NCBI RefSeq assembly: GCF_038637725.1
Contig: NZ_CP152052.1
Coordinates: forward strand, 479,501-543,500
From: Psychrobacillus sp. FSL H8-0483
GTDB taxonomy: Bacteria; Bacillota; Bacilli; Bacillales_A; Planococcaceae
Reading direction: 5' to 3'
DNA length: 64,000 nucleotides
In this document: positions 11,225-56,851 of the stretch, one piece after another
Numbering within the stretch: the stretch's first letter is position 1
Layout of the letters: each line of letters opens with the position of its first letter
Translations under genes and position numbers: made by a program
The notes under the pieces: model-generated
Database searches by the model: none
Seen by the model: only the letters and a program-made list of their open reading frames with translations
What the model was told of the DNA's origin: nothing

Positions 11225-11596
11225 GCACTGATAAACAGTTATTTAAAGTATTTCTCAAACGTGTAAAAGAGCAAATGACAGCAAAAATAGTAAGCATCCA
11301 TCATATCATATAAAGCGGTGCTCCCGAAATTGCATCTTCGGGAGCTAAATTTACGAATAGGAAAGTATTAATTTTCTCATTAACCAGAGTAACACTAACA
11401 TGTTGCCTAAAGTTGTAGAAGAGCGAAGGAAAGACGAACTTCACAAAATTACCGAAAAAAGATGGGAGGAAAATGACACCAGTCACTTTCCTCCCATCTA
11501 GCTACCCTACGGTAATGATGTAGTGAAAGTCAGTCCAAAGCACTTCTGAAACAAGTGCAACAGATTTGGCTTTTAAGTGCGCGATTTGCGCTTTTC
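11225..11596 (+). ncRNA. Structured noncoding element, family D copy D2 (diverged)
   Basis: Shares with 33,691-34,203 the order: hairpin with loop ATTGCATC, an A/T-rich arm (GGAAAGTATTAATTTTC here), a long hairpin, then CGGTAATGATGTAGT, GTCCAAAG and CAAGTGCAA. First hairpin at 11320-11345 (GCTCCCGAA / TTCGGGAGC) and long hairpin at 11461-11498. Stem bases differ from the other copy but pairing is kept, which points to selection on structure. It lies just past the 3' end of the amidohydrolase gene, on the opposite strand. The left boundary is uncertain. Confidence 0.55.
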
Positions 11597-12811
11597 TTAT
11601 ACTAATTCACCTTTGACCATTATTAGACGGTTTTTTGGTTTTCGAGCAACAACTTCTGCAGAAGAAGCAGCGTCAAAAAACACAAAGCTTGCATCATCTT
11701 GGATTTCTGGCCAAACTTTTTGACCCTCTTCGTTTAGGGCTAATACTCCACCAGTTACCCATTTAAGTGCGTTTCTTAGTGATTTTTCATCAATCTTACG
11801 AGTGAGTTCACTAAAACGAGTCGCTTTTTCTAATACATCACCAGTTCCATATGGACTCCATGAATCATAAAAACCATCGCAGCCGAAGTGTACTTTTACT
11901 CCGTGAGCATCTAACAGGTCGATCGGAGGGATTACTCGATTAATCGTAATCGGGACAGTAGACATAATGGCTACATCTGCTTCTGCAAGACGGTTGGCAA
12001 CAACTATTTGTTGTGGAACAGGGATATCCCCAAGACAGAAGGAGTGGCTCAAAGCTGTTCTACCTTGATAGTTTGCTTGTTCTACTATATCAATCCATTT
12101 GTCCGCTGTATAATAACCGACGAAGCCTCCATCGTGTAAGTGGATGTCCACATCCGCGTTAAATTCCGTTGCGATATCCATCACTTCATATAGTGATTTC
12201 TCGATGGCATTATCGATTCCTGCAGGATCTAACCCACCAACCATTGTTGCGCCACTTCTCATAGCTTCACGCATTAATTGGGGAACGGATTCACGTAACA
12301 GTCCGTGTTGTGGGAATGCAATGATATCAGCAGTTACTTTGCCTTTAAATGAATCTAGTGCAGCAATAACGCCTTCTAAATTTTTTAACCCAATATACGG
12401 ATCGATATTCACATGCGTGCGAATATGCGTAGATCCATATTGAAGAAGAGTCTCAATCATTTTCGTTGCTCGTTGCTCCGCACTATCCGCTAAAATAGAT
12501 AATTCTTTTGCTTCGAAATCTAAACGCTCTTTAAGGTTTGCAACTGGAGTACAAGCTTTCCAGTCTAACGTCATATACGTTTTATCTAAATGATTATGCA
12601 TTTCCTTAAAAGTAGGTAAGGCAAGCTTCCCGTGCATGTCCATCACTTCATGTCCAGCTGGGATTACTTCATTTGCTGTTAATTGATCTACAATTTTTCC
12701 ATCTTCTATTTTTAGATGAAATAAAGCAGTTTCTGTTTCAACTGTTCCATTAGCTAGTAATTTTTCTCCAGTTTCTAATTTCACATTAGAAAGCCATTTA
12801 ACTTTACTCAT
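11597..12811 (-). CDS. CodA-like amidohydrolase (cytosine-deaminase-type family), copy 1
   Basis: 404-aa metal-dependent hydrolase. Visible metal and active-site blocks are EMHNHLDKTY (about residue 69), THIRTHVNID, DVDIHLHDGG (about 210), TALSHSFCLG and FGCDGFYDSWSPYGTGD, the order seen in cytosine/isoguanine deaminases and related amidohydrolases. It hydrolyses or deaminates a ring or amide substrate, but the exact compound is unknown and plain CodA activity should not be assumed. Its ATG overlaps the stop of the paralogue at 12808 by four bases, so the two are translationally coupled downstream of the solute-binding protein gene. Confidence 0.8.
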   Translation of the reverse strand: MSKVKWLSNVKLETGEKLLANGTVETETALFHLKIEDGKIVDQLTANEVIPAGHEVMDMHGKLALPTFKEMHNHLDKTYMTLDWKACTPVANLKERLDFEAKELSILADSAEQRATKMIETLLQYGSTHIRTHVNIDPYIGLKNLEGVIAALDSFKGKVTADIIAFPQHGLLRESVPQLMREAMRSGATMVGGLDPAGIDNAIEKSLYEVMDIATEFNADVDIHLHDGGFVGYYTADKWIDIVEQANYQGRTALSHSFCLGDIPVPQQIVVANRLAEADVAIMSTVPITINRVIPPIDLLDAHGVKVHFGCDGFYDSWSPYGTGDVLEKATRFSELTRKIDEKSLRNALKWVTGGVLALNEEGQKVWPEIQDDASFVFFDAASSAEVVARKPKNRLIMVKGELV

Positions 12812-31355: not shown

Positions 31356-31464
31356 ATTTTATTTAAATTACACTTTCTCACTTTCTACAATACGTTTCTT
31401 TTTTTAGAAAAAGAAATACTTGCGATATTGTGATGATATAAAGAAATATGACACTTTTATCACA

Positions 31465-31570
31465 TCTAGAAATTTAGGTAATGGTGTAGAATTCGTTCAG
31501 TCCAAAGCAATCCAAAAGCACCTATACAGAAAGTACCTAGTGTTTTATCACAAAATTAACAAGTAATTTA
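31465..31570 (-). repeat. Truncated inverted copy D3 of structured element D
   Basis: The reverse complement contains GGTGCTTTTGGATTGCTT, GGACTGAACGAATTCTA and CACCATTACCTA in the same order and spacing as 33,763-33,809, plus weaker similarity before that (TTACTTGTTAA, GTGATAA, ACACTAGG). Only the first about 110 bases of the element are present. Together with D1 it forms an inverted pair around the chemoreceptor gene. Confidence 0.7.
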
Positions 31571-31671
31571 ATCGTTAATTTTAGGAAAACGACCCGTGTG
31601 GTGGAACTATTTACTGTTTTTCTCTGTTATACTTTAGAATGAAAAAATTTCTAATGTTAAAGGAGAAAATT

Positions 31672-33357
31672 ATGCGCATTAAAACAAGGCTTATTCTTGT
31701 TACTTCCATTTTAGTTTTATCAATTATTGCGGTTGGTGGATTTGCTATATGGAGTTTATCTCATACTGTTACGAAAAATAACGAGTTGAATAAGCTGATG
31801 GAAATGCAAACGGTAGCTAAACAAATTCAATATCGTCTTGCCGGTCTTTCTAATGACGAGAGAGCATTACTTCTTACAGGCGATAACACTTATGCCAAGC
31901 AAATGGAAGAAAAGTCAGCAGATATTAAAGAACAATTCGATAAATTAGGGGAGTTATCTAGCACATCTTCGGATCAACAAATGATTAATGATATCAAGAT
32001 AGACTACGAGCAATTTTGGAGCCAAAGTCAGCTAGTTATTCAAAATAGTACAATTAATCGAGCGAAGTCGGAAGAAATTCATTTTGGAGAAGAACGAAGA
32101 ATTCGTAAAGAAGTATTAGATCCAGCTTTTGAGGGATTTATTGACCAATTAGATAAAAATACTGCAGAGACAAATGAAAGTTTAGAGTCTCAATCAAAAT
32201 TAAGTCAAGGGATTCTAATAGGAATTTCTATTGTAGCGGTAGTGTTTGGTCTAATATTAAGTTCTATCCTTCTGAAAGCCATATTAGTTCCTTTACGCCA
32301 ATTAAAAGAGCAAATGAATGATATAGCTAATGGCGACGGCGATTTGACTAAAATCATTCATGTGAAAAACAAAGATGAGTTGGGGGAAGTAGCCACTTCG
32401 TTTAACCAGTTCCTAACTTCTTTAAGAGAAATGATTAAGCAAATTAGTTTTTCATCAGGACAAACGGCAGCATCTTCGGAAGAATTTTCAGCTAGTGCAG
32501 AGCAATCAAAACTAACATCCAATCAAATTGCAGAGAATGTCTACAATGTCTCAGTAAGTATGAATGATCAACTGCAAATTTTGAGTGAAAGTACTACTGC
32601 CGTCGAGCAATCTCTGCGCAGATTACAAAGCATGACACTTCATACAGCAGAGGTATCTGAAGAGACGAGTGAAGTTAGTATAAAAGCAGATAACGGGGAA
32701 AAATCCGTTCAGGAAATTGTTTCTTCCATGGAAGTGATTCATCAATCCGTAGGTGAAACTGACAAAAATATTAATTCATTGGCTGCTGATGCAGTTAAAA
32801 TTGGTGAGATTACAGCGATTATTAATGAGATTTCAGATCAGACCAATCTGCTAGCTTTAAATGCTGCAATTGAAGCTGCAAGAGCTGGAGAACATGGAAA
32901 AGGATTTGCTATTGTAGCCGAAGAAGTACGTAAATTAGCGGAACAATCAAGCCAATCAGCCAATCAAATTCGAACATTAATCACTCGTATTCAAGGGACG
33001 ACAACTGAAACCGTCAATACCATTGAAGTGGTGAAAGCGAATGTGGATAGTGGAATTCATTTAACATCTGTTACTTCTGTCCAATTCAAGGAAATCATCC
33101 AATCTATCTCACAAGTATCTGGAAAAACACAAGAAATAGCTGCGTCAACAGAACAACTAACAACGGATTTCACGATGGTTGCACAAAAATATGAAGAAGT
33201 TTCTGGGTTATTCAAGGAGAACTCTGAAAGTACCCATGAAATTGCAGCAGCTACAGAGGAGCAATTAGCGTCCATGGAAGAAATTCAAACAGCTGCTCAA
33301 TCGTTAACAACTATTTCTGATGCATTGAACGATATGGTGCATCGATTTAAAATTTAG
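31672..33357 (+). CDS. Methyl-accepting chemotaxis protein
   Basis: About 561 aa. Membrane helix 1 at the N terminus ([20 protein letters not shown]), a helical ligand-binding region of about 150 residues of the four-helix-bundle type, helix 2 ([20 protein letters not shown]), a HAMP domain, and the cytoplasmic signalling coiled coil with the hairpin-tip sequence [20 protein letters not shown] and [17 protein letters not shown]. It reports a small-molecule signal to CheA/CheW. Start at ATG 31672 has AAAGGAG upstream; the frame extends to 31639 without a site. D-type repeats lie on both sides in opposite orientation. Confidence 0.92.
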
Positions 33358-33625
33358 CTTTATCCAGCAGGGGTCCACAAACCCCAGCTGAATATCGAGG
33401 AACTTTGGCTAAGGTTGCCGCGTCTTGCTTGCGGCAACGCCTGAGTGACCAACATCCTGTCGGCCCAAAGCCTCCGGCGGATGTCACAGATTTTTTATCG
33501 ATCAAGCTCGATAAAAATCTGGGCGCACTGTTTTCTGCAACGAGCTTCTTGCGCAGGATCAATAACTTCTGCGGAGATGAACGAAGAGAAGCGGAAGCAA
33601 ATTCGCCGAGGCGTATTTGATCTAC
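33358..33625. repeat. GC-rich dispersed repeat family C
   Basis: A 270-base GC-rich block starts right after the chemoreceptor stop. It holds self-complementary pieces (GGGGT..ACAAACCCC, GTTGCCGCG..TTGCGGCAAC, TTTTTATCGATCAAGCTCGATAAAAA) and GTGACCAACATCCTGT, which is shared with copy A5 at about 55,140. Open frames in it on both strands are short and overlap each other, so I treat them as accidental. Confidence 0.65.
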
Positions 33626-33668: not shown

Positions 33669-33690
33669 GAAGTATATACATTTACACAAG

Positions 33691-34203
33691 TGTTGATTAA
33701 CCAAAAAGTACCCAGTGAATTGCTTATTAAAATGGTGATAACACAATAGGCATACTATGTAAAGGTGCTTTTGGATTGCTTGGAACTGAACGAGTTCTAG
33801 ACCATTACCTAGAAAATAAGCAAGGAACGCATGATAGAAAGTGATAGAGTGCCTGAAATTGCATCTTCGGGCACTTCCACTATGAGTAGAAAGGTTGCTA
33901 TTCTTTCCTTTTCCAAATCCATTCTTTTGAGCATTGTAGGTACATAACGGAGACCTGCACGAGGCAGGTCACACAGTCGTCGCGACACGATGTCGCGTAC
34001 TTAGACTGTGCTCCTTTAAATATCCACAACAGGATTATCGAAAATAGTGTAGCAGGAAGTGACGCGGTCACTTCCTGCTACACTTAGCCCTCGGTAATGA
34101 TGTAGTAATCATTTCGTCCAAAGTGAACCAAGAACGTACAAGTGCAAAATGGGATTCTTGCGCATTTCGTGAAATTTTAATGGTGAAAATTGGTTAATCA
34201 ACA
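33691..34203 (+). ncRNA. Structured noncoding element D1 with 14-bp terminal inverted repeats
   Basis: Ends are perfect inverted repeats, TGTTGATTAACCAA (33691-33704) and TTGGTTAATCAACA (34190-34203). Inside are at least five stems: TTGCTT/AAGCAA (33776, 33818) enclosing GAACT/AGTTC; AGTGCCTGAA/TTCGGGCACT at 33848-33875; GGAG/CTCC (33949, 34011) closing a junction of two hairpins (ACCTGC/GCAGGT and CACAGTC/GACTGTG with CGCGACA/TGTCGCG); an 18-bp stem at 34046-34084; and AATGAT/ATCATT near 34097. G-U pairing favours a plus-strand RNA. No open frame. Direct repeats TATACATTTA flank it at 33675 and 34209. Class unknown. Confidence 0.6.
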
Positions 34204-34325
34204 GACGTTATACATTTAGCAAGTAATTTGAGTTTCCTGATAATAACTAGTAACGTTTTTCCCCCGTGTAATCAGGTATTACATCGATAAGAACCTAATA
34301 GTAAAAGTGCTTCTCTATAATGTAA

Positions 34326-35990
34326 TTACATTTCACTTGGTGCTTTAATTCCAAGCAAACGTAATGCTTCTTCTAATACAATAACGACAGACTGGACAAG
34401 TGTAATGCGATAAGATAACTGGCTTGAATCACTCACTACTTGGACATTTCCGTAAAAAGAGTTGAATGATTGTGCTAAATCAATCGCATATTTTGCTACT
34501 AAAGATGGATCAAACTCATCAGTCGCACGTTTAATAATGTTTGGAAATTGTTGTAGTGATTTAATGACTTCCCACTCATAATTATTCACGTCTGTAACTT
34601 CAAACATGTCAACTTTATGCACTTTTCTTAAAATAGAACATGCTCTTGCGTAAGTATATTGGATATAAGGTCCTGTTTCTCCCTCAGTTTGGAGCATTTT
34701 TTTCAAGTCAAATTCGATGTCATGCTTCCGGTGTTGTTTTAAATCACTAAAGATGATTGCTCCTACACCTACTTCTTTAGCCACTTCTTTTTTATTAACT
34801 AATAAAGGATTTTTTTCTTCTATCGTTGTTTCTGCTAGTCGAATTGCCTCGTTTAACACTTCTTCTAATAAAATAATTTTTCCTTTCCGAGTGGATAATT
34901 TTTTACCATCTTTCAATATCAATCCAAAGGGAATATGATGCATTGTCTTCGACCAGTCATAGCCCATTTTATTTAATACAATTTTTAACTGTGCAAAGTG
35001 TAAACTTTGTTCATTTCCGACAATATACAAAGACTTTACGAAATGATAATTCTTTTTGCGATGAATAGCAGCTGTGATATCTCTAGTTGCATATAAGGTC
35101 GCGCCATCTGATTTTTTAATTAGACAAGGTGGCATATTTTCACCAACGTCTACGACAAGTGCACCATCCGAATCAATTAGGAGATTTTTTTGTTGTAACT
35201 TTTCTACAATTGGATCCATTTTGTCATTATAATAAGCCTCGCCTTGAAAAGAATCAAAAGCTACGCCAAGTAGGTTATATATTTTTTGAAATTCTTTTAA
35301 CGATTCTGTTCGAAAGCCTTCCCATATCTTCAAAGCTTCGGAATCACCGTCTTCCAACGACTTAAATGCTGCTCTTCCTTTGTCATTTAGCGTGTCATCA
35401 ATTTCAGCTTCCTCATGAAAACGAATGTAAAGAGATAGTAATGATTGAATAGGAGCTGCTTGGACTTTCTTTTCATCCCCCCATAATCGATAAGCTACTA
35501 GCAATTTCCCAAATTGTGTACCCCAGTCACCTAGATGATTAATTTTAATCGGTTGATATCCATTTTTTTCGTGTAATAAAGCAATGGAATTTCCAATAAC
35601 AGTAGATCTTAAATGCCCCATAGAAAAGGGCTTGGCAATGTTTGGTGAGGACATATCAATTGTAACAACACCACCGCCCCCTATATTCGAAGAACCATAT
35701 TGATTTCCTTCCTTATGAATGGTAGTCAATACAGATGTTGTAAATTTTGTTCGTTTCATAAAAATATTCACATAACCTCCAACTGCTTCTACTTTTTCAA
35801 TGTTTTCGTCCTGGATACTAGTAGCGAGTTCTTGCGCTATTAAATTAGGTGATTTTCTTTGCTTTTTTGCAAATGAAAAGCAGGGGAGTGCATAGTCTCC
35901 TAAATGTGCATATGCAGGCGCCTCAATCATTTGCTCCTCGATTAATTCCGTAGTGAAATTTTGAAGAATTTCTACAACTGTCTGCTTCAT
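34326..35990 (-). CDS. argS: Arginine--tRNA ligase
   Basis: 554-aa class I aminoacyl-tRNA synthetase that charges tRNA-Arg. The ArgS N-terminal Add1 domain is followed by the HIGH-type motif in SSPNIAKPFSMGHLRST (about residue 115), the KMSKS-like loop region LKDGKKLSTRKGK and a C-terminal DALR anticodon-binding domain (about 435-554). Length matches the family. An arginine-type T-box leader precedes it, so expression rises when tRNA-Arg is uncharged. Many Bacillales carry two argS genes; whether this is the sole one cannot be seen here. Confidence 0.93.
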   Translation of the reverse strand: MKQTVVEILQNFTTELIEEQMIEAPAYAHLGDYALPCFSFAKKQRKSPNLIAQELATSIQDENIEKVEAVGGYVNIFMKRTKFTTSVLTTIHKEGNQYGSSNIGGGGVVTIDMSSPNIAKPFSMGHLRSTVIGNSIALLHEKNGYQPIKINHLGDWGTQFGKLLVAYRLWGDEKKVQAAPIQSLLSLYIRFHEEAEIDDTLNDKGRAAFKSLEDGDSEALKIWEGFRTESLKEFQKIYNLLGVAFDSFQGEAYYNDKMDPIVEKLQQKNLLIDSDGALVVDVGENMPPCLIKKSDGATLYATRDITAAIHRKKNYHFVKSLYIVGNEQSLHFAQLKIVLNKMGYDWSKTMHHIPFGLILKDGKKLSTRKGKIILLEEVLNEAIRLAETTIEEKNPLLVNKKEVAKEVGVGAIIFSDLKQHRKHDIEFDLKKMLQTEGETGPYIQYTYARACSILRKVHKVDMFEVTDVNNYEWEVIKSLQQFPNIIKRATDEFDPSLVAKYAIDLAQSFNSFYGNVQVVSDSSQLSYRITLVQSVVIVLEEALRLLGIKAPSEM

Positions 35991-36011: not shown

Positions 36012-36232
36012 AAAAAGCCCTCGTCTCATTATAAAAATGAGACGAAAGCTTGAACTTCCGCGGTACCACTCAATTTGCCTATTTTAGGCCACTTTCTCCA
36101 TAACGGTGAGTCTCCGGCTTTATTATAAAAAGCATCTCTAAAGTGCGGTTCACAACTCTTCTTAACTAGGCTTACACCATCCCTAGCTCGCTTGATGATC
36201 CGATGTTGTTACTCTCTTTATCTTAGATATTG
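36012..36232 (-). promoter_or_regulatory. T-box leader of argS, specifier CGC (Arg)
   Basis: On the minus strand AGAGTAACAAC and GTTGTGAAC frame the specifier loop, with GAAC-CGC-A giving the arginine codon CGC at 36145-36147. The T-box sequence AGTGGTACCGCGGAAG lies at 36055-36070 and is followed by the terminator stem CGTCTCAT / ATGAGACG and TTTTTT (36012-36050). Uncharged tRNA-Arg should favour the antiterminator. Confidence 0.9.
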
Positions 36233-36318
36233 TATTTGAATTTACCAAATAGAAAAGTTAATGTCAATTTCTTTAATAAAAAATAAATGAAAATGTTTTG
36301 AACATTTTCAGGTAGTGC

Positions 36319-55006: not shown

Positions 55007-55236
55007 CTGTTGTTTTTTTAGAAGCATATTTTGTGACGTAAATCCGCGAGAGTCCTGTAGAAAAACGGGCTACCAAGAAACCGCAGCGAGCTTATCGGAA
55101 CAAATCCTAAATTCGCCACGTCCATGTGGCAACAGATTCGTGACCAACATCCTGTTGCCCTGAGGAGGCTTGGCAGTTCGTCCACGGAAAACGAACGGAT
55201 TTTCGGCAGGTAATAACATTATCGTTTAACAGAGCC
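55007..55236. repeat. Dispersed repeat family A, longest copy A5
   Basis: From CTGTTGTTTTTTTAGAAGC to GTTTAACAGAGCC, reverse-complementing copy A1 over both ends. It is longer because of an internal block (GTGACCAACATCCTGTTGCCC) shared with family C. Its right end overlaps the 3' end of the MFS gene: the last codons and stop of that gene are repeat sequence. Confidence 0.75.
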
Positions 55237-56472: not shown

Positions 56473-56765
56473 AAAAAAAATCCCACCCCCAAGACAATTG
56501 TCTTGGGGACGAGATTAACATGTCGTGGTGCCACCCCAGTTTGCTCTAATGTCACCATTAGTGCCTTTTCAAGTACGGCATGAATGAATACATGCTTATA
56601 CTTTAGCTCGATAACAGGAGCACCTGTCACACAATCTCTTGCAAATTTGCAAGTCCCATGTGAAGCTCAGAGGCTTGTTTCAGTAACCGTATTCTTACCC
56701 CTTTGCAGCTACCAGGGCTCTCTATAAAAAAATTGGATTACTTACTCTTCTCTTCATAGCTTTTT
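56473..56765 (-). promoter_or_regulatory. T-box leader upstream of the MFS transporter
   Basis: Minus strand: AGAGTAAGTAA and TTACTGAAA frame the specifier loop, the T-box sequence CTGGGGTGGCACCACGACA is at 56521-56539, and the terminator stem CCCCAAGACAA / TTGTCTTGGGG plus TTTTTTTT is at 56473-56508. By spacing from GAA as in the argS leader, the specifier is CAA (Gln) at 56675-56677, though shifted readings such as AAC (Asn) are possible. TGGC in the bulge predicts a tRNA with G73. Confidence 0.85.
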
Positions 56766-56851
56766 ATTTTGAACATCATATCATACATTTTGTTAATATG
56801 CATAAAAGAAATTCATATATCTCAAACTATAAGGGAAAAGGAGTGATTTCC

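What the first reader, a model, noticed from the sequence alone, without database searches (positions are those of the whole stretch)
33691..34203. A 513-bp, heavily structured noncoding element with perfect 14-bp terminal inverted repeats
Seen directly: perfect TIRs (TGTTGATTAACCAA), no coding frame, and an ordered series of strong stems including a GGAG/CTCC-closed three-way junction and an 18-bp hairpin. TATACATTTA direct repeats sit 6 and 5 bp outside the TIRs. Large structured RNAs (OLE, ROOL, GOLLD, group I/II introns, IS605-linked omega RNAs) are known, but I see none of the sequence hallmarks I know for introns, and no protein gene is attached. The combination of TIRs and RNA-like structure suggests a non-autonomous mobile element that carries an RNA, possibly undescribed.
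Basis: partly seen in the sequence, partly recalled or inferred. Interest (0 to 1): 0.8.

Follow-up and report, generated by a model that had tools for sequence, protein, structure and literature searches.

The report
IS4-type miniature transposon carrying terminator-like repeats
This 525-bp stretch is a small, gene-less jumping-DNA element with the ends of a known insertion-sequence family, and its hairpin-rich filling is made of two other repeat families rather than one new RNA gene.

Summary
The perfect 14-bp inverted repeats are the inner part of 20-bp ends, so the element is 33685-34209 (525 bp), flanked by a 9-bp target duplication, ATACATTTA. It is a non-autonomous member of the IS4 family (IS4Sa-like). 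Intact 1255-1264-bp ISs on four Bacillales plasmids carry matching ends and 9-bp duplications; in this genome only a transposase remnant was found, beside one such end. Of 26 candidate copies compared in the genome, 24 have a recognisable end and 11 have both. Relatives show uninterrupted sites for several other copies.

The filling is a mosaic. (1) Pieces of a ~390-nt palindromic repeat ("core") that also stands alone in dozens of copies and was found in 19 of 19 genus genomes searched. Several copies of the element hold it as an inverted pair; this one has lost most of the left half.

The stems covary. But the 18-bp hairpin has a T-tail only on the minus strand (17 of 17 aligned cores), like an intrinsic terminator facing argS. 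I read the core as terminator DNA inserted at gene ends. A functional RNA remains possible but unproven.

The parts
33685..34209 (.). whole element, 525 bp
   Evidence: ends set by comparison with 25 other candidate copies and with plasmid IS4-family ISs
33676..33684 (.). left 9-bp target site duplication ATACATTTA
   Evidence: 9 of 9 identical to the right copy
34210..34218 (.). right 9-bp target site duplication ATACATTTA
33685..33704 (+). left terminal inverted repeat CACAAGTGTTGATTAACCAA, corresponding to the 3' end of the parent-type IS
   Evidence: 19 of 20 to the family left end, which is identical to the IS 3' end in 3 of the 6 plasmid ISs examined; alignment
34190..34209 (-). right terminal inverted repeat (reads AACGTCTGTTGATTAACCAA inward), corresponding to the 5' end of the parent-type IS
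   Evidence: 17 of 20 to the family right end; IS 5' end similarity extends past the repeat
33765..33815 (-). remnant of the left, reverse-oriented core repeat (model positions 270-320); the rest is deleted in this copy
   Evidence: nhmmer core model; other copies keep more of it
33808..33951 (+). right core repeat, first piece (model 46-197)
33954..34020 (-). nested Bacillaceae-1 element (RF01690), the GGAG/CTCC three-way junction
   Evidence: 67.9 bits, gathering 35; absent from copies L003, L005 and L021
34021..34196 (+). right core repeat, second piece (model 202-389)
34046..34084 (-). 18-bp hairpin with tail ATTTTCGATA on the minus strand: terminator-like, facing argS (34326-35990, minus; TIGR00456)
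   Evidence: the same kind of T-tail in 17 of 17 aligned cores, 0 of 17 on the other side

Best explanation
The element is a miniature, non-autonomous transposon of the IS4 family (IS4Sa-like). An IS4-type DDE transposase acting in trans would bind the 20-bp ends and insert the element, duplicating 9 bp of target (inferred from ends, duplications and uninterrupted sites; not shown biochemically). Between the ends the family carries an inverted pair of a genus-wide palindromic 'core' repeat. In this copy the left core is mostly deleted, and a Bacillaceae-1 element sits inside the right core. The core most likely works as terminator DNA: its main hairpin plus T-tail would stop transcription arriving from the core's 3' side, here from argS. 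That would make insertion next to gene ends tolerable and would keep the stems under selection without any separate RNA function (inference). With only a transposase remnant found in this genome, the family is probably not moving here now (inference).
For: Copies: 68 matching pieces in the genome (several pieces can belong to one copy, and some are other repeats sharing its modules). Of 26 candidate copies that I picked from these, 24 have at least one end (14 or more of 20 positions) and 11 have both. Duplications: in those 11 copies the 9-bp flanks agree at 9, 8, 8, 7, 7, 6, 6, 6, 6, 4 and 3 positions; 110 mismatched pairings average 3.6 and reach 7 or more in 3. Parent: of 278 plasmid records with a similar transposase I fetched 6. 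Four hold ISs of 1255-1264 bp, with the 3' end identical to CACACGTGTTGATTAACCAA in 3 of the 4 and exact 9-bp duplications in 4 of 4. The 2 transposases scanned score as IS4 family over the cut-off; the YREK signature is in 5 of 6 aligned. The only PF01609 match in the genome is a C-terminal remnant, 118 aa as a frame (129, although one search prints 617), beside the end TGTTGATTAACCAA. Uninterrupted sites: of 6 complete flank joins searched in 19 genus genomes, 4 are matched end to end or nearly so (1160630 copy in 9 relatives, up to 83%; 166900 in 6, 67-71%; 442420 in 3; 3695300 in 2) and a fifth (1666020) is crossed at 71% in 2 (listed matches; sequences of 5 of these loci seen). Nested insert: copies L003, L005 and L021 lack Bacillaceae-1 at the site where this copy, L002, L004 and L024 have it. 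Terminator reading: 17 of 17 aligned cores have 5 or more T in the 8 bases after the hairpin on the reverse strand, 0 of 17 on the forward strand. Of 40 standalone cores with a 3' end, 17 have it within -45 to +10 bases of a convergent frame's stop, against 75 of 4000 random noncoding points of the window. Of 42 standalone clusters, 22 lie between convergent frames, against 8 of 48 neighbour pairs in the window.
Against: No clean uninterrupted site for the window copy itself: in the seven relatives inspected the DNA next to argS lacks the element but differs in content. One of 6 complete joins (2969530) was not crossed in the listed matches, and two of the 11 duplications are poor (4 and 3 of 9). 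IS4-ended clusters are less often between convergent frames (9 of 26), and some standalone clusters counted there are neighbours at one locus. The terminator scan finds one site in 1.1 kb against 0.9 expected in shuffles, although with a long stem. No transcript data were available. G-U pairs outnumber A-C pairs 41 to 22 in the model-fitted alignment, which leans towards an RNA on the plus strand. An open 406-aa frame with 41% identity to the remnant exists in one genus member (G014), so related transposases are not gone from the genus.
Confidence: 0.85

Rival explanations
1. The element carries a functional structured RNA (the core) and moves it: an undescribed RNA family spread by transposition, acting in trans or on the neighbouring transcript.
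For: Strong covariation over 42 pairs: 24 pairs with a change on both sides, covariation score 0.352 against 0.167 in shuffles; 0.348 against 0.121 on 69 model-aligned rows from the genus, in which both strands of most sites are counted. Present in 19 of 19 genus genomes. No Rfam match for the core at gathering threshold in the window; on 11 related loci at E up to 1 only sub-threshold matches fall on cores. G-U over A-C 41 to 22 (33 of 69 rows).
Against: G-U and A-C are equal, 33 to 34, in the alignment that was not fitted to a model; both strands fold; RNAalifold on its own recovers only the T-tailed hairpin, for which a terminator suffices; the element family holds the core in both orientations; promoter-like sites in the region are at chance level (3 found, 2.3 expected).
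Confidence: 0.15
2. The palindromes are REP/BIME-like DNA moved by a tyrosine (Y1) transposase of the RAYT kind, and the IS4 ends are incidental.
For: The genome has two Y1 transposase matches; Bacillaceae-1 is bounded by GGAG/CTCC here and gives 78 matches, 77 over the Rfam cut-off.
Against: Neither Y1 locus (about 1.5 kb on each side) has a Bacillaceae-1 match at E up to 0.1. The whole element has DDE-type inverted ends and 9-bp duplications, which single-strand Y1 transposition does not make (established knowledge, recalled).
Confidence: 0.05
3. A plain internal-deletion derivative of the parent IS.
For: About 25-30 bp at each end align with the corresponding IS ends, in matching orientation.
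Against: Little similarity beyond that in the ~130-160 bp aligned at each end; the interior matches the core repeat and Bacillaceae-1.
Confidence: 0.03

Closest known systems
IS4 family, subgroup IS4Sa (PMC2266710, 'IS4 family goes genomic'; passages with Table 1 seen)
   Same: ends with CA and T at position 9, 9-bp duplication within 8-10, parent size 1255-1264 within 1150-1750, transposase with the YREK signature
   Different: the window element has no transposase; its interior is unrelated repeat DNA. No sequence comparison with ISfinder entries was possible
MITEs and mobile insertion cassettes (MIC231; named in passages of PMC6542083; its content is recalled)
   Same: non-autonomous DNA between ends of a DDE IS, mobilised in trans
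   Different: MIC231 carries a passenger gene (recalled); this element has no ORF of 60 aa and holds pieces of an inverted pair of another repeat family plus a second nested repeat
Bacillaceae-1 RNA, RF01690 (PMC2864571, passages with its table row seen)
   Same: the 33954-34020 part is a full-length match
   Different: here it is one of 78 matches in a genome and behaves as an insert with unoccupied sibling sites; the papers seen list it as an RNA, with the strand uncertain (PMC4333381, passages)
bcr1-bcr18 repeats of the Bacillus cereus group (passages of PMC6542083)
   Same: high-copy repeats of 100-400 bp restricted to one group of bacteria, with mobile-element features
   Different: bcr mobility is linked there to TTTAT motifs, not IS4 ends; no sequence comparison was made here
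BOX elements of streptococci (recalled)
   Same: modular repeats with conserved outer parts and variable inner modules
   Different: not compared by sequence; no claim of kinship

Membership tests
IS4 family (IS4Sa-like), non-autonomous member | 20-bp ends beginning CA with T at position 9 | tested here: met
   left end CACAAGTGT; right end AACGTCTGT has the A and the T but its first base differs; family right end CACGGCTGT; reference feature from Table 1 of PMC2266710
IS4 family (IS4Sa-like), non-autonomous member | target duplication of 8-10 bp | tested here: met
   9 of 9 identical in the window copy; 4 of 4 plasmid ISs with matching ends have exact 9-bp repeats
IS4 family (IS4Sa-like), non-autonomous member | parent transposase with DDE domain and Y(2)R(3)E(6)K | tested here: met
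   IS4 equivalog NF033592 above cut-off for the 2 intact transposases scanned, remnant below it at 65 of 115 bits; YREK in 5 of 6 aligned sequences, L101 has H for R
IS4 family (IS4Sa-like), non-autonomous member | transposition by that transposase | not testable with these tools
   no experiment; only a remnant gene was found in this genome
MITE | short, no coding frame, inverted ends, target duplication, many copies | tested here: met
Bacillaceae-1 (RF01690), nested part only | covariance-model score at or above gathering | tested here: met
   67.9 against 35, model 1-67 of 67
Known large structured RNAs or introns in Rfam (OLE, ROOL, GOLLD, HEARO, group I/II) | Rfam model match to the element | tested here: not met
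   only RF01690 within the element at gathering threshold; no such family listed for 11 related loci at E up to 1
Mobile insertion cassette | passenger protein gene between IS ends | tested here: not met
   no ORF of 60 aa or more inside
Intrinsic terminator (core hairpin) | GC-containing stem followed by a T tract | tested here: met
   17 of 17 aligned cores on the reverse strand; window site
Intrinsic terminator (core hairpin) | stops transcription | not testable with these tools
   no transcript data

The most novel reading that the evidence does not exclude
The core is an undescribed family of mobile transcription-terminator cassettes (perhaps also an RNA): a structured repeat that spreads to the 3' ends of genes throughout one genus and at least one other genus of the family, often abutting the stop codon of the gene it would terminate, and that an IS4-type transposon has captured as an inverted, two-way pair.
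Probability: 0.3. Interest if true: 0.7.

Novelty: new variant of a known kind. Interest (0 to 1): 0.42.

Why it matters
It shows that a structure that looks like one large new RNA can be three layers of mobile or repeated DNA, and that an Rfam family (Bacillaceae-1) behaves like an inserting repeat in this genome. If the core is a mobile terminator, it offers a testable route by which repeats rewrite gene 3' ends across a genus.

Tried and rejected
Rejected: large known RNA families and introns; internal-deletion derivative of the IS; RAYT-type mobility of the whole element. At first I took query position 139 of the element for an insertion hotspot; the core model showed it is the deletion junction of the left core. 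CsrA binding by Bacillaceae-1 (passages of PMC4333381): not pursued; by eye both loops of the window copy read TCGTG, not the TCCTG that gives GGA on the other strand.

Led nowhere: a scan of genome contigs with an exact 21-base end gave 2 hits, in a Dyadobacter and an archaeal MAG, which I take for chance. The B form of the core against plasmids gave nothing; the L003 element against phages gave nothing and against plasmids gave 5 records, in the stretch of its separate GGGGCTGTCC insert and not in the core. A tRNA control for the G-U count was dropped because few tRNAs were held, so that count has no positive control. The organism's name was not established. Paper searches. "IS5377 + MITE" and "miniature inverted-repeat + Planococcaceae" found no paper in the held library; that is all I can say about print.

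Limits of counts: core-model counts per genus genome (4 to 148) come from at most 150 scored candidates and can count both strands of one palindrome. The family search scored 40 candidates per genome with stricter filters. In one search, 19 of 61 genomes match the element (16 of 19 of the genus), many of the listed matches covering only the Bacillaceae-1 part. A3 used 17 of 18 clustered sequences (L129, with an extra 8 nt in the hairpin, left out), after 3 gappy rows of 36 were dropped and the rest thinned at 90% identity. One search used 33 of 69 rows, leaving out the reverse-strand and weaker matches. The assignment of core fragments to IS4-ended elements used a hand-made list of intervals. 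One search left out 5 of 73 clusters below 50 bits.

Full report
Observation. The 14-bp arms, the flanking TATACATTTA repeats, the lack of a frame and the strong folding are all there. The minus strand folds nearly as well as the plus strand (z -7.3 and -8.7), as expected of palindromic DNA. The neighbours are a methyl-accepting chemotaxis receptor gene on the left, plus strand (31639-33357, PF00015), and argS on the right, minus strand (34326-35990, TIGR00456); both run towards the element.

The ends. A search of the window's own 4.14-Mb genome gave 68 matching pieces. I fetched loci and compared 26 candidate copies, the window's included. Of these, 24 carry at least one recognisable end and 11 carry both. 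The family ends are CACACGTGTTGATTAACCAA and, at the other side, TTGGATAATCAACAGCCGTG. The window element therefore runs from 33685 to 34209 and its flanks give an exact 9-bp duplication, ATACATTTA. Over the 11 two-ended copies the 9-bp flanks agree at 9, 8, 8, 7, 7, 6, 6, 6, 6, 4 and 3 positions; 110 mismatched pairings average 3.6 and reach 7 in 3.

The parent. The only DDE_Tnp_1 (PF01609) match in the genome is a C-terminal remnant in a 118-aa frame lying beside the end TGTTGATTAACCAA. A search with it in 19 genus genomes gave 8 with a match: the genome's own, 4 that match only the unrelated first 38 residues, a broken one in G016 and a broken one in G010 (45%), and an open 406-aa frame in G014 (41%). 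Among plasmids, 278 records match and I fetched 6. On plasmids of Priestia filamentosa, P. megaterium, Planococcus lenghuensis and Lysinibacillus capsici the gene lies in an IS of 1255-1264 bp whose ends match the element's, with an exact 9-bp duplication in 4 of 4. The Geobacillus IS5377-like copy matched at one end only, and the Priestia flexa copy did not match. The 2 intact transposases scanned are IS4 family, and the YREK signature is in 5 of 6 aligned rows. Size, ends and duplication length fit subgroup IS4Sa in Table 1 of PMC2266710 (passages read). Similarity of the element to the IS covers about 25-30 bp at each end, in matching orientation.

Uninterrupted sites. Flanks of eight other copies were joined in a script and 1617 of the 1920 letters were searched in 19 genus genomes (its list is cut). 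Of 6 complete joins, four are matched end to end or nearly so in relatives: the 1160630 copy in 9 (up to 83% identity), 166900 in 6 (67-71%), 442420 in 3 and 3695300 in 2. A fifth, 1666020, is crossed at 71% in 2, and 2969530 was not crossed in the listed matches. Relatives' sequences were inspected for two of these sites, five loci (the program's alignment across the insert was poor, but the relatives' sequence runs from one flank into the other without the element). For the window copy itself, seven relatives lack the element next to argS, but their content there differs, so this is not a clean test.

The filling. An nhmmer model built from several repeats in the genome (389 positions) finds 102 non-overlapping fragments in the fetched DNA, 46 in the IS4-ended elements and 56 standalone. 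Of 26 IS4-ended clusters, 12 contain core pieces in opposite orientations, the window's among them; the longer ones are an inverted pair. In the window copy, 33765-33815 is what is left of the reverse core, and 33808-33951 plus 34021-34196 are the forward core. Between these two pieces sits Bacillaceae-1 (RF01690, minus strand). Copies L003, L005 and L021 continue across that point without it, while L002, L004 and L024 have it. The genome holds 78 RF01690 matches, 77 over the cut-off. Many of the 44 whose flanks were printed lie inside larger shared repeats.

Is the core an RNA? In 17 diverged copies a four-helix structure is paired in 84% of cells, with 24 of 42 pairs changed on both sides and a covariation score of 0.352 against 0.167 in shuffles; no slid version exceeds 0.125. 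RNAalifold on its own recovers only the long hairpin. A covariance model finds the core in 19 of 19 genus genomes. In the wider family it is in 12 of 81 genomes: the 7 of this genus examined and the 5 of one other genus, none of the other 69 at E up to 0.001. G-U and A-C cells are 33 and 34 in the free alignment and 41 and 22 in 33 rows of the model-fitted one, so the strand evidence is weak. What is clear is the T-tail: 17 of 17 cores have it after the hairpin on the reverse strand and 0 of 17 on the forward strand. Standalone cores sit often between convergent frames (22 of 42 clusters, not all independent, against 8 of 48 neighbour pairs in the window; IS4-ended clusters 9 of 26). In 17 of 40 copies with a 3' end, that end lies within -45 to +10 bases of a convergent frame's stop, against 75 of 4000 random noncoding points. 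The gene calls are simple ORF calls of 90 aa or more. I therefore read the core as a terminator cassette. Covariation is what a terminator stem would show, so it does not require a separate RNA function.

Mechanism. Shown by sequence: ends, duplications, copies, uninterrupted sites of other copies, a parent-type IS, the mosaic interior and the nested insert. Inferred: mobilisation in trans by an IS4Sa-type transposase, present immobility in this genome, and termination of argS transcripts at 34084-34046. How the core and Bacillaceae-1 themselves spread is not known.

Verdict. A new, mosaic variant of a known kind of element. The undescribed-RNA half is reduced to a repeat family whose likeliest role is termination.

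Noticed in passing
window 11246-11608, plus strand: A standalone core copy (209 bits) whose CTTTTCTTA ends in the reverse complement of the stop codon of a convergent 405-aa frame.
   Followed up: partly
window 31462-31585: A fragment related to the element's left arm and the core, just upstream of the chemotaxis receptor gene.
   Followed up: no
window 33393-33463 and 55091-55158: Two further Bacillaceae-1 matches, 56.8 and 53.5 bits.
   Followed up: no
L107, L110, L112, L116, L119: In these 5 of 10 printed starts, the standalone 'B' form of the core begins right after the T-run of an upstream terminator or core, as if inserting after terminators; tandem copies occur.
   Followed up: partly
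L003:1850-2320, L017: Another repeat (GGGGCTGTCC...) is inserted in these copies, and in L017 itself contains a Bacillaceae-1 match; part of it matches 5 plasmids of Priestia, Planococcus and Radiobacillus, and L003:2024-2272 gives a sub-threshold match to S. aureus tsr24 (34.6 of 50 bits).
   Followed up: partly
L002, L004, L024, L032: Some Bacillaceae-1 copies carry an extra ~40-nt stretch in the inner hairpin, a further nested repeat.
   Followed up: no
L150, L151: Two Y1 transposase genes (191 and 219 aa, RAYT-like by eye); the second has a GTGCCTGGCACC palindrome nearby.
   Followed up: no
window 36035-36233 and 56502-56766, minus strand: Two T-box leaders, 107.2 and 103.2 bits; the first lies just upstream of argS.
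   Followed up: no
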